Below are positions 12,317-37,727 of a stretch of 64,000 nucleotides of DNA, one piece after another. The position numbers and the translations under genes are program-made. The notes beneath the pieces are model-generated. The model ran no database searches, was not told the origin of the DNA, and saw only the letters and a program-made list of their open reading frames with translations. The stretch's first letter is position 1, and each line of letters starts with the position of its first letter. This DNA is from Pseudomonadota bacterium (GTDB taxonomy: Bacteria > Pseudomonadota > Alphaproteobacteria > UBA9655). The stretch is taken from the NCBI GenBank assembly GCA_018242065.1, contig JAFECQ010000017.1:1-64000 (forward strand), written 5' to 3'.

Positions 12317-12862
12317 ATGGGTCATATTCAAACTAAAATAAACAGAAAAATCGTCTTAGCTTTTCTTTCTCTTGCTATTCTTTTTCTTCCTAAAGAAGCT
12401 TTAGGTTCCACACCTTATCTTTGCGACAGTCAGTATGCTTTGTGTACGTCTGCAAAATGTTCTCCTATACCAGGGAAAGAAGAGATTTCTTTATGTTATT
12501 GTACTGTTGAGGCAGGATATTCTTTTGGGAATAAACCCTGTGAAAACGTAAGAACAAACAAGGACGGTTACCAATTGCTTAGATCACGGTATTACCCAAG
12601 TAAAAGTTATCGCAATTGTTCAAATGAACGTACGTGGGCAGACTGCTTAGATAAACCATGCATTGTCAATAAAGACAATCCTTCAGAAGCAGTCTGTACT
12701 TGTACAAACAAAAGGAATCAGGGAGATTACGTTGTGCAATGTAATGCGTCATGTGACTCTGACATATATTCCTCAGCTCTAACGAGTGTCGTTGTCGAAC
12801 AGAGCAAGCAGTTCCAAAACCAGGATAAATTACCCACCGCACCCCCTGTTTTTTGTAAATAA
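12317..12862 (+). CDS. Secreted cysteine-rich protein with a duplicated Cys module
   Basis: The 181-residue product has a hydrophobic signal segment at about 13-30 (IVLAFLSLAILFLPKEALG) and 14 cysteines in the exported part. Two copies of one spacing pattern are visible: C-x4-C-x11-C-x-C at LCTSAKC...CYC and again at DCLDKPC...CTC. This suggests an internal duplication of a disulfide-bonded unit. No enzyme motif is present. Similar C-x-C patterns occur in the small secreted proteins near lpxC in this window. Function is unknown; export and disulfides point to a periplasmic, surface or host-facing role. The next gene (antiporter) starts 21 bases downstream and may be co-transcribed. Confidence 0.75.
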   Translation: MGHIQTKINRKIVLAFLSLAILFLPKEALGSTPYLCDSQYALCTSAKCSPIPGKEEISLCYCTVEAGYSFGNKPCENVRTNKDGYQLLRSRYYPSKSYRNCSNERTWADCLDKPCIVNKDNPSEAVCTCTNKRNQGDYVVQCNASCDSDIYSSALTSVVVEQSKQFQNQDKLPTAPPVFCK

Positions 12863-32514: not shown

Positions 32515-33924
32515 ATGACTCAGTCACAAAATGAAGAGAAAAAGGAACTCAAGCCTCGGATTACCGTAATTGGAGTAGGCGGTGCTGGGGGAAATGCGGT
32601 TAATAATATGATTCGTGGCGATTTGTTAGGCGTAAAATTCATTGCCTCCAATACAGACGCTCAAGCACTTTCTCTCTCTCTAGCTGAATCTAAAATTCAA
32701 CTTGGTTTTGAGGCAACGCAAGGATTAGGGGCGGGGTCTCATCCAGAAGTAGGACGCGCTTCCGCTGAAGAGAGTATTGAAGATGTCTTAAAAGATATTG
32801 AAAACAGTAACATGCTCTTTGTGACAGCTGGAATGGGCGGAGGAACAGGATCTGGAGCCGCGCCAGTTATTGCTAAAGCTGCACGTGAAAAAGGAATTCT
32901 TACGATTGGTGTTGTAACTAAACCTTTCCATTTTGAAGGTTCAAATCGTATGCGCACAGCAGAAAAGGCCATTGAAGAGTTGCAGCAATATGTTGATACA
33001 CTGATCATTATTCCAAACCAAAATCTTTTCCGTGTTGCTAATGAAAAAACCACATTTGCTGATGCCTTTAAAATGGCAGATGACGTGCTTTATTCTGGTG
33101 TTCGCAGTGTGACTGATTTGATGATGAAGCCGGGGCTTATTAACCTTGACTTTGCGGATGTGCGGGCCGTCATGGGTGAAATGATGGGCAAAGCCATGAT
33201 GGGAACTGGGGAAGCACAAGGAGAAGGACGAGCAATTGAAGCCGCAGAGGCCGCCATTTCAAGTCCGCTTTTAGAAGACGTTTCAATGCGTGGAGCTAAA
33301 GCCGTTCTTATCAATATCACAGGTGGTCTTGATATGACACTTTATGAAGTTGACGAAGCAGCTAATCGTATTCGTGAAGAGGTTGATCCTGAAGCACATA
33401 TTATCTTTGGTTCAACTTTTGATGAGAACCTTGAGGGGCGCATTCGTGTGTCATGTGTGGCAACAGGTATAGATGCTCAAGCCGCAAGCTTGTTAAGCAA
33501 GGCGCGTATTGCTGAACTTGAGCAAGAGATGCAGCTTGCAGCCCGCAAGGTTGAAGAAGAGCAGATTCATGAGCAAATGGCTTCGGAACCTGAGAAAGAG
33601 TTTGTTCCTGCCGAACTCGATTTTGAAGATCGTGTAATTAATTTAAGAGAAATTTCCTCAACAGATTCTTATTCCCAAGAGTTGCCAGGTAGTGAGCCTT
33701 CTAATTATCAAAACCCTACCCCTGCGTCTCAGCGTGAAGAAAGTCGTTCCTTTAGTTTATTTGATCGCCTTATGGGGAGAAAAAGTCAGCCTGCGCGTGC
33801 ACAAGAAGCTGCAAAACGATCTCTTCTTCCGCAAGCAACCTTACAAACAAATCCTGAGCCTGTCTCTGAAGAAGACGAATCCATGGACATTCCTGCTTTT
33901 TTGAGGCGGCAGTCGGGTCGTTAA
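32515..33924 (+). CDS. ftsZ: Cell division protein FtsZ
   Basis: FtsZ is the tubulin-like GTPase that forms the division ring. The 469-residue product has [17 protein letters not shown] at the N-terminus, the tubulin signature GGGTGSG at 108-114, and the T7 loop region [12 protein letters not shown] long variable linker, rich in Glu, Ser, Gln and Pro (about 340-450), precedes the conserved C-terminal peptide [12 protein letters not shown], which binds FtsA and other partners. GGAG lies about nine bases before the ATG. The 61-base gap after ftsA may hold an extra promoter, though I see none that is convincing. Confidence 0.97.
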
Positions 33925-34002: not shown

Positions 34003-34284
34003 ATGAAAATCCAATTACATAAAATATTTTTCTTCCTGAGCATCGCTTTGTTTGCTTTAAATAGTGATCTCTTGGCGACTATAAATTGTCCTGCAACGGG
34101 AGGAGCAGGTATGATTCCCTGCTTATGTCAACTGGGCGGACCAGATCCTATGGGAGAGACAACAGTCTATGTTAAACTTGGAAATAAGACTCCTGAGGCT
34201 GCATGCAGTACCTGTAAAGGTACAGATGAAAATGGGCTAAAGTGGACTTGTAACTTTTCCTGTGGTGGTGGGGCGTCCAAGTAG
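34003..34284 (+). CDS. Small secreted cysteine-rich protein
   Basis: The ATG at 34003 has a GAGGAGG ribosome binding site six bases upstream and begins a clean signal peptide (MKIQLHKIFFFLSIALFALNSDLLA); it is preferred over the ATG at 33979. The 93-residue precursor has six cysteines in its mature part, with a C-x-C (PCLC) and a C-x2-C (CSTC) followed by TCNFSCGGG. No family or function is recognised. It lies directly after ftsZ but is not a division gene by content. It resembles neighbouring small secreted Cys-rich genes in layout more than in sequence. Confidence 0.65.
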   Translation: MKIQLHKIFFFLSIALFALNSDLLATINCPATGGAGMIPCLCQLGGPDPMGETTVYVKLGNKTPEAACSTCKGTDENGLKWTCNFSCGGGASK

Positions 34285-34417
34285 AGCGTCAACACGCTTT
34301 TCTTTGAAAGCAGAACGTTCAAGATTATGTTGCAGTAAAAAGGTTATTCTCTTTACCTGTGATGTTTTCAGAGTAATTAAAAGTTTACAAATTTTAAATT
34401 TTTGTAAGGAGGCTTTA

Positions 34418-34729
34418 ATGGGAAGTGCTTTTCTCTTTTTTTGTGGGAGCGTGATTTTTCTCTCTCTCTTGATGGCAGCAAATCAGGAAGTGGATTATCA
34501 CAATTTGGTTGCACATGTGCAGGGCTAATAGCTTTTGAAATAGCTCAATGTGCATTATCGTATTGAAAATGTGCTGCGGAAGAGAGTCAGTATGACGCGA
34601 TCTGTACCTGTCAAACGGGTTGGTTAATACGTCGCTGTACAAATTGGGATGAGATATTCAATGATCCAAGGGTGTAAGTGCCAAAACCAGATTTCCGAAA
34701 AATACGGTGAAAACTGCAATGCCGCCTAA
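34418..34729 (+). pseudogene. Degraded secreted cysteine-rich gene with frameshifts and a stop
   Basis: A perfect GGAGG site precedes the ATG at 34418, which begins a signal peptide (MGSAFLFFCGSVIFLSLLMAA). That frame closes after 36 codons (34526-34528). Cysteine-rich coding sequence continues in another frame: GCTCAGLIAFEIAQCALSY, a TGA stop, then KCAAEESQYDAICTC and QTGWLIRRCTNW, ending at TAA 34675-34677. A third frame gives GCKCQNQISEKYGENC, ending at TAA 34727-34729. The C-x-C motifs match the style of the intact Cys-rich gene at 12317. At least two frameshifts and one stop are needed to join the parts, so I call it a pseudogene. Confidence 0.6.
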
Positions 34730-34830
34730 ATGGTCTGAAAAGATAATAAAATAAAAATATAATATCCATAGAAAAAAGAAGGATAACTTTCTTTCTATGT
34801 TGAATTTTTTAAACAGAGTCGAGGATACTA

Positions 34831-35118
34831 ATGAAAAAATCTATTTTTTTATTAATGATATATTCTTTTACTCTTTTTCCTCTATTCGCTCAAAGTTCTG
34901 TAGATAAGGATAACATTGCTCAAATGGAGAAATTTCTCCATAAAAACAAGAACAAAATAAACAATCTTAAGGAAAACGGACAATATTTAGCTTGTTATAG
35001 AAATTGCATGGCGACTATGTGTACGGATTCTGATTATTGTCCTTACGTTTGCTTTTTTTATGCCCTTAGCTGTATAAAAGAAAAAGATAGAGATTTGAAG
35101 ATAAAAAAGAATAACTAA
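34831..35118 (+). CDS. Small secreted protein with six cysteines
   Basis: The 95-residue product starts with a signal peptide (MKKSIFLLMIYSFTLFPLFAQS). The mature part opens with a charged Lys/Asn-rich helix (about 25-50), followed by six closely spaced cysteines (ACYRNCMATMCTDSDYCPYVC and a final SC), and it ends in a Lys-rich tail. The spacing suggests a compact disulfide-stabilised helical hairpin. No family is recognised. The ribosome binding site (GAGGA) is about eight bases upstream. It lies between the degraded Cys-rich gene and lpxC. Confidence 0.65.
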   Translation: MKKSIFLLMIYSFTLFPLFAQSSVDKDNIAQMEKFLHKNKNKINNLKENGQYLACYRNCMATMCTDSDYCPYVCFFYALSCIKEKDRDLKIKKNN

Positions 35119-35256
35119 TCTCACTTTCTTTTGATATTTTTTGTTTAAATTGCTTGTTAAGCTTTCTTGTAACAAACCGTCATAATCAGTGATTTGTCTC
35201 AAGCTTTCCTGTGTTTTATCCTTTAAAATAGAAAACATAGGTAAAGGAACTACCAA

Positions 35257-36195
35257 GTGACCGGTCTTCATTCTATTTCTGTTGAACAAAGCCAACCTCA
35301 AGTTTGTGCTCTTATTCCTGACATTGAGCTACGTCTCCAACATCATCAAAAAACAATAGCAAACGTCGTTTCTTGTCAAGGTATTGGAGTTCACTCTGGG
35401 ATGCCAGTAACAGTAACGTTACATCCAGCAGTTTCCGGAAGTGGCGTTACGTTTATTCGTACAGATCTTGGAGGAGCAGAAGTAAAAGCTCAGTGGCAAA
35501 CGGTCGTTGATACGCGTTTTTGTACCACAGTTGGAAATGCACAGGGTGTAACTGTTTCTACGATTGAACATTTGATGGCAGCTCTTGCAGCAAGTGGCAT
35601 TGATAACGTTCGTGTTGAAATAGATGGACCAGAACTTCCTATTATGGATGGAAGCGCTCAGCCATTTGTGGCACTTGTTGAAGAAGCTGGTGTTAAGGAG
35701 CAACGAGCTCCTCGCAAAGTTATTCGTGTTTTAAAAACAGTGACCGTTGAAGAAGGGGACCGGAAAGTCTCTCTTGCACCTGCGCCTTATTATGAAATTG
35801 AGGTTGACTTTGATTTTGCCGGGCGAACAACTTTAGCCCCACAACATCGGGTGTTCTATCCTTTAGAAGAAGATTTTGCAGAAGAGATTTCTTCGGCTCG
35901 TACTTTTGGTCTTTTAGAAGATGCAGAGAAAATATGGGCTATGGGTCTTTCTAAAGGTGCTTCATTGGAAAATACACTTGTTTATGACGGTATGCACGTT
36001 ATGAATGAAGATGGCTTACGTTATGAAGATGAGTGTGTTCGGCATAAAGTACTGGATGCCCTTGGCGATCTTCACTTAGCAGGTGGATTGATTTTTGGTA
36101 AATTCCATGGTGTTCGTACCGGCCATGGTCTGCATCATAAGTTGTTGTTGGCTCTTTTTGCGGATCCAAGTGCTTACACCATAGAGATGCGATAA
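35257..36195 (+). CDS. lpxC: UDP-3-O-acyl-N-acetylglucosamine deacetylase LpxC
   Basis: LpxC is a zinc hydrolase catalysing the first committed step of lipid A synthesis. The 312-residue product uses a GTG start with AAAGGAAC eight bases upstream. Zinc and catalytic residues are in place: Glu104-His105 (STIEHLMAAL), His263 and Asp267 (RHKVLDALGDLHLAG) and His290 (TGHGLHHK). The N-terminus carries an extension of about 30 residues before the QKTIANVVSCQGIGVHSG core. LpxC often follows ftsZ directly; here small secreted genes separate them. Confidence 0.97.
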   Translation: MTGLHSISVEQSQPQVCALIPDIELRLQHHQKTIANVVSCQGIGVHSGMPVTVTLHPAVSGSGVTFIRTDLGGAEVKAQWQTVVDTRFCTTVGNAQGVTVSTIEHLMAALAASGIDNVRVEIDGPELPIMDGSAQPFVALVEEAGVKEQRAPRKVIRVLKTVTVEEGDRKVSLAPAPYYEIEVDFDFAGRTTLAPQHRVFYPLEEDFAEEISSARTFGLLEDAEKIWAMGLSKGASLENTLVYDGMHVMNEDGLRYEDECVRHKVLDALGDLHLAGGLIFGKFHGVRTGHGLHHKLLLALFADPSAYTIEMR

Positions 36196-36198
36196 AAA

Positions 36199-36465
36199 TT
36201 ACTTCGTATGTTTTATGGCTTGTTGTGAGCTACAGAAATTTTTACGATTTGTATCGTCATCTTTTTCTCTATTTGGTTTACACTGACAAGCAGCTGGTAT
36301 TCCTGGACATTTACATTGCCAGTAACCGTATGGACATGGTGCGCCTCCGGGATTGAGATTATTGGGACCAGGAGGGGTACAAGCTATAAACTGCGCATTA
36401 CATAAGGAAGTCATAGAGACGCTTAATATAAATACCCAGAGAAGTGTTGCTTTCAATAATTTCAT
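36199..36465 (-). CDS. Small secreted Cys/Pro-rich protein
   Basis: The 88-residue product has a signal peptide (MKLLKATLLWVFILSVSMTSLCNA). The mature part is rich in Cys, Pro and Gly, with two C-x-C motifs (QCKC and CQC) and PCPYGYW, then a charged tail ending in Lys. The ATG follows AAGGAAAAA on the minus strand. It is convergent with lpxC with only three bases between the stops. Function is unknown; layout and cysteine content group it with the other small secreted proteins of this region. Confidence 0.65.
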   Translation of the reverse strand: MKLLKATLLWVFILSVSMTSLCNAQFIACTPPGPNNLNPGGAPCPYGYWQCKCPGIPAACQCKPNREKDDDTNRKNFCSSQQAIKHTK

Positions 36466-36633: not shown

Positions 36634-37452
36634 ATGCAAAAGCATCTGTTAAAATTGGGAGGGGCCCTCGCTCTTCTTTTAGTAGCGGCCTGTAGTGATA
36701 AGGAAAAACCTTACGTCGAAAAGCCTGCGACAGAGCTCTATTTAAAGGGATTTGAAGACCTTGTGAAAAATGATTATAAGGATGCTGCGGGATCCTTTGA
36801 TGAAGTTGAGCGACAACACCCATATTCAGAATGGGCGACGCGCGGACAGCTGATGTCGGCTTATACCAACTATTTAAATGGAGATTATGATAAAGCGATT
36901 GCAACTTTGGATGCTTTCATTCAATTGCATCCTGGTTATAAGCACATCGATTATGCTTATTATTTAAAAGCGTTGAACTATTATGATCGGATCTTAGCCG
37001 TAACGCGTGATCAGAAAAATACCTATGAAGGGCTTAATGCCTTGCAAGCCGTTGTTAAGAAGTTTCCTGATTCAAAGTATGGGCGGGATGCTCAACTTAA
37101 AATAGACCTTGTCTATGATCATTTGGCTGGAAAAGAAATGACAGTGGGTCGCTATTATATGAAAAAAGATCTTTATCTCGCGGCAATTAATCGTTTCCAA
37201 ACGGTTATTGATGCCTATCAAAGGTCTACGCACGTTCCTGAAGCTTTACATCGTCTTGTGGAATGCTATTTAGCAACGGGGCTTACAAAAGAAGCTCAAG
37301 CTGTAGCCGCTGTTTTAGGGCATAATTATCCAGGGAATGAGTGGTACGCAGATTGTTATATGCTTCTTAAAGGTGAAGATTTACGCCCTGAATGGATTAA
37401 GATGGAAGAAGGTTCTTGGCTTGAACGTCTAATGAATATTCAGATCTTTTAA
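36634..37452 (+). CDS. bamD: Outer-membrane assembly lipoprotein BamD
   Basis: BamD is the essential lipoprotein partner of BamA in the complex that inserts beta-barrels. The 272-residue product has a signal peptide with lipobox LVAAC (acylated Cys20), then TPR-like repeats: LYLKGFEDLVKNDYKDAAGSFDEVERQHPYS, MSAYTNYLNGDYDKAIATLDAFIQLHPG, and later EMTVGRYYMKKDLYLAAINRFQTVIDAYQ. It starts behind AAGGAAGGATAG and is followed by a strong terminator at 37485-37501. The length is normal for ComL/BamD. Confidence 0.95.
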   Translation: MQKHLLKLGGALALLLVAACSDKEKPYVEKPATELYLKGFEDLVKNDYKDAAGSFDEVERQHPYSEWATRGQLMSAYTNYLNGDYDKAIATLDAFIQLHPGYKHIDYAYYLKALNYYDRILAVTRDQKNTYEGLNALQAVVKKFPDSKYGRDAQLKIDLVYDHLAGKEMTVGRYYMKKDLYLAAINRFQTVIDAYQRSTHVPEALHRLVECYLATGLTKEAQAVAAVLGHNYPGNEWYADCYMLLKGEDLRPEWIKMEEGSWLERLMNIQIF

Positions 37453-37523: not shown

Positions 37524-37727
37524 TTATTTTGGTGCCTCAGGCGCTGGAGCTGGTGCAGCTTCCGGAGCTGGTGCTGGAGCTGGAGTTGGCTCAGGAGCTG
37601 GCGCTGGCGCTGGTGCTTCAGCAGCTGGAGGTGGTGGAGGAGGAGTCTCTTCCGCTTTCTTCTCTCCGCAAGCTGTAAGGGTTAAAGCACAAGCCGCAAA
37701 TAAGGCTGTATACACTGTTGATTTCAT
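37524..37727 (-). CDS. Small Pro/Ala-rich lipoprotein
   Basis: The 67-residue product has a signal peptide ending in the lipobox LTAC (Cys20). After a short charged stretch (GEKKAEET), six prolines and a PAPAPAPEP-like low-complexity tract run to the end (30 or so residues of Pro, Ala and Glu). Such extended tracts span periplasm or cell wall in TonB- and lipoprotein-type proteins; here there is no folded domain after it. The gene is bounded by the terminator at 37485-37501 on its 3' side. The function is unknown, and it may act as a spacer or wall-spanning tether. Confidence 0.7.
   Translation of the reverse strand: MKSTVYTALFAACALTLTACGEKKAEETPPPPPPAAEAPAPAPAPEPTPAPAPAPEAAPAPAPEAPK

What the first reader, a model, noticed from the sequence alone, without database searches (positions are those of the whole stretch)
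34003..36465. Island of small secreted Cys-rich genes between ftsZ, lpxC and bamD
Four small genes (one degraded), each with a signal peptide and clustered cysteines, interrupt the normally tight ftsZ-lpxC neighbourhood. Different sequences but a common style suggest a fast-evolving secretome, perhaps host-facing. Presence of a pseudogene indicates ongoing turnover.
Basis: partly seen in the sequence, partly recalled or inferred. Interest (0 to 1): 0.6.

Follow-up and report, generated by a model that had tools for sequence, protein, structure and literature searches.

The report
Fast-changing small cysteine-rich secreted genes
Three small genes and one broken gene wedged between essential cell-division and envelope genes belong to a genome-wide, rapidly changing set of cysteine-rich exported proteins in a little-known bacterial genus; a role at the host interface is plausible but unproven.

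Summary
Three intact small ORFs with Sec-type signal sequences and 6-7 mature cysteines (34003-34284 +, 34831-35118 +, 36199-36465 -) and one broken gene (about 34419-34730) interrupt ftsZ-lpxC-bamD. The pseudogene is real: intact relatives occur in two other species of the genus, at another place in the genome. Where ftsZ and lpxC are adjacent in alphaproteobacteria outside this genus, the gap is about 100-330 bp; four species of the genus have about 115 bp, so the 1.33 kb here is most likely a derived insertion. The intact genes have no detectable orthologue in the other genomes of the order.

The region is not a special island. The same kind of gene is scattered, often in rows, between housekeeping genes across this genome (16 in 622 kb; Markov null 0-3) and in some relatives. 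The ftsZ-lpxC gap is a permissive site: relatives carry an IS630 transposase or a HepT/nucleotidyltransferase pair there. Best reading: a lineage-specific exported Cys-rich repertoire with rapid gain and loss. Host-facing use is likeliest but only inferred; envelope or T6SS-immunity roles remain open. A similar lineage-specific secretome, not noted as cysteine-rich, was reported in the related endosymbiont Bodocaedibacter.

The parts
32515..33924 (+). ftsZ (left anchor)
   Evidence: Pfam Tubulin/FtsZ 164.6 bits and FtsZ_C 130.5 bits
34003..34284 (+). sec1: 93-aa orphan, signal sequence (cut about residue 25), 7 mature Cys including a CLC motif
   Evidence: ORF; signal and Shine-Dalgarno-like site; no homologue in 16 other genomes of the order, none in Pfam, NCBIfam, plasmids, viral contigs or PDB
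34419..34730 (+). pseudogene of a Cys-rich secreted family; frame broken, TGA at 34564-34566, TAA at 34675-34677; outer limits approximate
   Evidence: intact relatives G013:C13 (L265 1393-1731) and G009:C108 (L266 1438-1755 -); dN/dS about 0.28 over 55 codons, dS near saturation
34831..35118 (+). sec3: 95 aa, signal sequence, 6 mature Cys (ACYxxCM...C...C...C..C); possible distant paralogue of a gene on contig C16
   Evidence: ORF; paralogue suggestion L174 6260-6640, Smith-Waterman 51, 0 of 1000 shuffles
35168..35196 (+). conserved 29-nt element upstream of lpxC, marking the right limit of the insertion
   Evidence: alignment of 13 genus genomes; found only upstream of lpxC in the sampled DNA
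35257..36195 (+). lpxC
   Evidence: Pfam LpxC 327.3 bits
36199..36465 (-). sec4: 88-aa orphan, signal sequence, 7 mature Cys (QCKC, CQC)
   Evidence: ORF; signal; no homologue in the order, none in Pfam, NCBIfam, viral contigs or PDB
36634..37452 (+). bamD (right anchor)
   Evidence: Pfam YfiO 175.6 bits

Best explanation
The four genes are members of a genome-wide, lineage-specific repertoire of small Sec-exported, probably disulfide-stabilised proteins that are gained, relocated, diverge and decay quickly. They sit here because the end of the ftsZ transcription unit, just before lpxC's own conserved upstream element, tolerates insertions. Proposed mechanism (inferred): Sec export, oxidation in the periplasm by the Dsb pathway, then action at or beyond the cell surface against a changing partner, most likely a eukaryotic (protist) host. 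Shown: ORFs, export-type signals, Cys richness, genome-wide occurrence, turnover, pseudogene, DsbB presence. Not shown: disulfides, release from the cell, host, target.
For: 16 Cys-rich secreted ORFs in 622 kb of this genome against 0-3 in Markov nulls; 9 in 206 kb of G009, 4 in 199 kb of G015; 1 in 214 kb of G014; 0 in about 200 kb each of G011, G024 and G035. With at least 6 Cys: 30 seen against 0.9 expected, 27 of 30 even. Orphans. Pseudogene with intact relatives elsewhere. Different Cys-rich ORFs at the same borders in G001 (lpxC-bamD), G009 and G012 (after ftsZ; after lpxC in G012). The G009 gene after ftsZ carries a mannan-binding MVL lectin domain over Pfam's cut-off. DsbB in 18 of 20 genomes including this one. 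Gap used by IS630 and HepT/nucleotidyltransferase genes in G002 and G014. Precedent: Bodocaedibacter has 105 uncharacterised lineage-specific proteins with signal sequences (PMC8163844).
Against: Two of the three intact genes here have an odd number of cysteines. The even-Cys excess over all hits is modest against the Markov null (34/38 against 72%, p 0.01). No host is known for this genus; no full GspD-type secretin passes its cut-off in this genus, so release from the periplasm is unexplained. At least one secreted Cys protein family is conserved across the genus, so not all members are fast-evolving or need be host-facing.
Confidence: 0.5

Rival explanations
1. Envelope proteins: the small Cys-rich proteins stay in the periplasm or cross-link at the outer membrane, as chlamydial cysteine-rich envelope proteins do (analogy from general knowledge).
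For: Sec signals, DsbB present; one family conserved across the genus with invariant Cys; no dedicated exit machinery identified.
Against: Rapid turnover and orphan status are unlike structural envelope proteins; the repertoire was not found in sampled DNA of some close relatives (G011 0 in 198 kb).
Confidence: 0.2
2. Orphan periplasmic immunity proteins for T6SS or contact-dependent toxins: small, exported, often disulfide-bonded, lineage-specific, in rows.
For: Rows of unrelated small exported genes (C2 13.4-19.4 kb); T6SS is conserved in the related Holosporineae (PMC11909080).
Against: No toxin gene adjoins the four genes; Cys content (up to 24 per protein) is higher than usual for immunity proteins (general knowledge); T6SS was not tested in this genome.
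Confidence: 0.15
3. Neutral: short-lived ORFs in permissive intergenic DNA without function.
For: Same gap holds a transposase, toxin-antitoxin-type genes and palindromic repeats in relatives.
Against: Signals, Shine-Dalgarno-like sites and Cys richness far above the Markov null; the pseudogene family diverged with dN/dS about 0.28.
Confidence: 0.1

Closest known systems
Lineage-specific Sec secretome of Candidatus Bodocaedibacter vickermanii and UBA6184 (PMC8163844)
   Same: Related alphaproteobacteria, similar GC (40.6% against 40.7% here); about 100 uncharacterised proteins with signal sequences limited to the lineage
   Different: That paper's main text does not mention cysteine; no sequence comparison could be made here
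Small secreted cysteine-rich effector candidates of fungi and oomycetes
   Same: Small, signal sequence, Cys-rich, orphan, fast turnover
   Different: Eukaryotic; no homology; effector function untested here
MVL (mannan-binding lectin) domain proteins, Pfam PF12151
   Same: One Cys-rich protein after ftsZ in relative G009 has this domain over the cut-off
   Different: None of the window's genes match it
Chlamydial cysteine-rich envelope proteins
   Same: Exported Cys-rich proteins in an intracellular bacterium (general knowledge)
   Different: Those are conserved structural proteins; these turn over quickly; not compared by sequence

Membership tests
Small secreted cysteine-rich (effector-like) proteins | N-terminal Sec-type signal sequence | tested here: met
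   crude rule-based predictor, all three intact ORFs; SignalP not available
Small secreted cysteine-rich (effector-like) proteins | Small size and Cys-rich mature part | tested here: met
   88-95 aa, 6-7 mature Cys
Small secreted cysteine-rich (effector-like) proteins | Lineage restriction and turnover | tested here: met
   no homologue of sec1 or sec4 in 16 other genomes of the order; sec3 none by single sequence in 11 same-genus genomes; pseudogene
Small secreted cysteine-rich (effector-like) proteins | Disulfide pairing (even Cys) | tested here: inconclusive
   7, 6 and 7 Cys in the window genes; 27 of 30 repertoire members with 6 or more Cys are even
Small secreted cysteine-rich (effector-like) proteins | Acts on a host | not testable with these tools
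   no host known, no expression data
MVL lectin (PF12151) | Pfam match over gathering score | tested here: not met
   window genes: no match; only G009 L039 passes
Genus-wide conserved secreted Cys family (A4) | sec3 scores above shuffled controls against the family profile | tested here: not met
   0.7 bits, below many shuffles; only its suspected paralogue L174 scores (20.7 bits)

The most novel reading that the evidence does not exclude
An alphaproteobacterial genus has evolved a large, fungal-effector-like arsenal of small disulfide-rich exported proteins, including lectin-like members, with birth, relocation and loss at intergenic hot spots, used in contact with protist hosts.
Probability: 0.3. 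Interest if true: 0.65.

Novelty: new variant of a known kind. Interest (0 to 1): 0.4.

Why it matters
If exported to hosts, this would be a bacterial counterpart of the cysteine-rich secretomes of fungi and oomycetes, in a group of uncultured bacteria related to known protist endosymbionts, and it would give concrete candidates for host interaction where none are known. Even without that, it documents how orphan exported genes enter and decay between essential genes.

Tried and rejected
Pfam, NCBIfam and PDB sequence searches with the window genes: nothing significant. Plasmids with sec1 and viral contigs with all three: nothing. AlphaFold2 of sec1 alone: pLDDT 51, unusable. Fold of the conserved family A4 was moderate (pLDDT 75.5) but Foldseek found no match. 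sec3 as a member of family A4: rejected. sec1 related to a G012 protein also located after ftsZ: 2 of 200 shuffles, not significant after many comparisons. Secretin search: weak hits (48-133 bits) throughout the genus, none at the GspD cut-off, and no correlation with the repertoire. Rfam: nothing in the interval. Promoter scan no better than shuffles, no terminators. Papers on cysteine-rich secretomes in this group: none found. An ungapped dN/dS estimate was discarded for a gapped one.

Full report
What is there. The window is part of a 1.9 Mb, 45-contig alphaproteobacterial genome, in an order for which 17 genomes are held, 15 of them in one genus. Its closest ftsZ relatives are metagenome bins labelled only 'Alphaproteobacteria bacterium'; named genomes further down the list include Candidatus Paracaedibacter (about 58%). 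Between ftsZ (32515-33924) and lpxC (35257-36195) lie two intact small genes and a broken one; a third intact gene lies between lpxC and bamD on the opposite strand. All three intact genes start with ATG behind a Shine-Dalgarno-like site, have a plausible Sec signal sequence by a rule-based predictor that I wrote, and 6-7 cysteines in the mature part.

The pseudogene is real. The stretch 34492-34674 reads as a Cys-rich peptide with one internal TGA, and the upstream start is out of frame with it. A search with this broken peptide, X at the stop, found an intact relative in G013 (54%, E 3e-13) and one in G009 (42%, E 6e-4). Both are small Cys-rich ORFs with hydrophobic N-termini, not placed beside ftsZ or lpxC; the G009 copy lies in a row with two other exported Cys-containing ORFs. 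Over 55 aligned codons dN is about 0.48 and dS about 1.7 (near saturation), which suggests that the gene was mostly under purifying selection before the break. G013 itself has the tight ftsZ-lpxC gap, so this family has changed place in the genome, or was gained separately.

The intact genes are orphans. sec1 and sec4 have no match at E 0.05 in the 16 other genomes of the order, and sec3 has none below E 0.1 by single sequence in the other same-genus genomes searched. sec3 may be a distant paralogue of a 12-Cys protein on contig C16 (0 of 1000 shuffles reach its score, though several dozen proteins were compared), which in turn is a weak member of a conserved, genus-wide family of about 135-residue exported proteins. 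sec3 itself does not score against that family.

The place. Outside this genus, in the alphaproteobacteria among the fetched loci that keep ftsZ and lpxC adjacent, the gap is about 100-330 bp; in Paracaedibacter and most Holosporaceae loci no lpxC was found downstream within the fetched DNA. In this genus G003, G010, G011 and G013 have about 115 bp, G000 1,333, G002 about 3,070, G014 about 2,000 and G004 about 620; in G001, G005, G007, G009 and G012 the two genes lie on different contigs, and in G008 ftsZ was not found. A tree of FtsA, FtsZ, LpxC and BamD places the window's genome next to the tight clade, but several deep nodes are weakly supported and the exact count of insertions is not settled. 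The inserts differ: G014 has a HepT/nucleotidyltransferase pair, an AAA protein and a BON-domain protein; G002 an IS630-type transposase in pieces and a 418-aa exported protein; G004 only short palindromic repeats. All inserts end before a nearly invariant 29-nt element about 60 bp upstream of lpxC (window 35168-35196). So the gap is a permissive insertion site, not a dedicated secretome locus. Yet Cys-rich exported ORFs recur at these borders: between lpxC and bamD in G001, after ftsZ in G009 and G012, after lpxC in G012.

The repertoire. With one filter (signal sequence, Shine-Dalgarno-like site, at least 4 Cys and 4.5% Cys, no long overlapping ORF), 622 kb of this genome gave 16 hits against 0-3 in second-order Markov sequence; G009 gave 9 in 206 kb and G015 4 in 199 kb; G014 gave 1 in 214 kb; G011, G024 and G035 gave none in about 200 kb each. 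The samples are partial, so 'none' does not mean absent from those genomes; G011's own clade holds the conserved family (G010) and, in G013, the intact pseudogene relative. Of 30 hits with 6 or more Cys in 1.63 Mb (0.9 expected), 27 have an even number, as expected of disulfide proteins, although two of the three window genes are odd. A second row on contig C2 (13.4-19.4 kb) has at least seven such genes around an RNA helicase. One G009 protein, lying after ftsZ, has an MVL mannan-binding domain over Pfam's cut-off. DsbB, needed for periplasmic disulfide formation, is present in this genome and in 18 of 20 searched.

Reading. The data support a lineage-specific exported Cys-rich repertoire under rapid turnover. 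A host-facing role is the likeliest use, by the turnover, the lectin domain and the kinship to protist endosymbionts, of which Bodocaedibacter was reported to have 105 uncharacterised lineage-specific proteins with signal sequences (PMC8163844). It is inferred, not shown: no host, expression or release from the cell was demonstrated, and envelope or immunity roles remain open. The finding is a real and moderately interesting case of a known kind of phenomenon, with the Cys-rich character in this group apparently undescribed in the papers I could search.

Noticed in passing
window 35168-35196: 29-nt element (TGTAACAAACCGTCATAATCAGTGATTTG) upstream of lpxC, nearly invariant in 13 genus genomes and found only upstream of lpxC in the sampled DNA; contains the inverted repeat AATCA-G-TGATT; possible lpxC-specific promoter or operator.
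   Followed up: partly
window 44701-45798 (-) and about 52131-52586 (-); also L161, L160, L165, L174, L257, L259, L138, L255: A repeat of about 60-65 aa (like EEIVDFLMTSNAYPEWDKVDPENKTWVV) shared by many large, often signal-bearing proteins of this genome; no Pfam or NCBIfam repeat family names it. One carrier (L257 11505-14873) also matches Ntox8 and Peptidase_S8.
   Followed up: partly
window 12317-12862 (+): A further 181-aa Cys-rich exported ORF (14 Cys) in the same window.
   Followed up: no
L176 13424-19385 (contig C2): Row of at least seven Cys-rich exported ORFs around an RNA helicase gene, two of them paralogues with a CxCxxGRxC motif shared with the G009 gene after ftsZ.
   Followed up: partly
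L252 2057-2464 (-) and L244-L250: Conserved exported protein of about 135 aa with eight invariant Cys across the genus; no known family or fold match.
   Followed up: partly
window 37524-37727 (-): 67-aa proline/alanine-rich lipoprotein-like ORF next to bamD, with a counterpart at the same place in G002.
   Followed up: no
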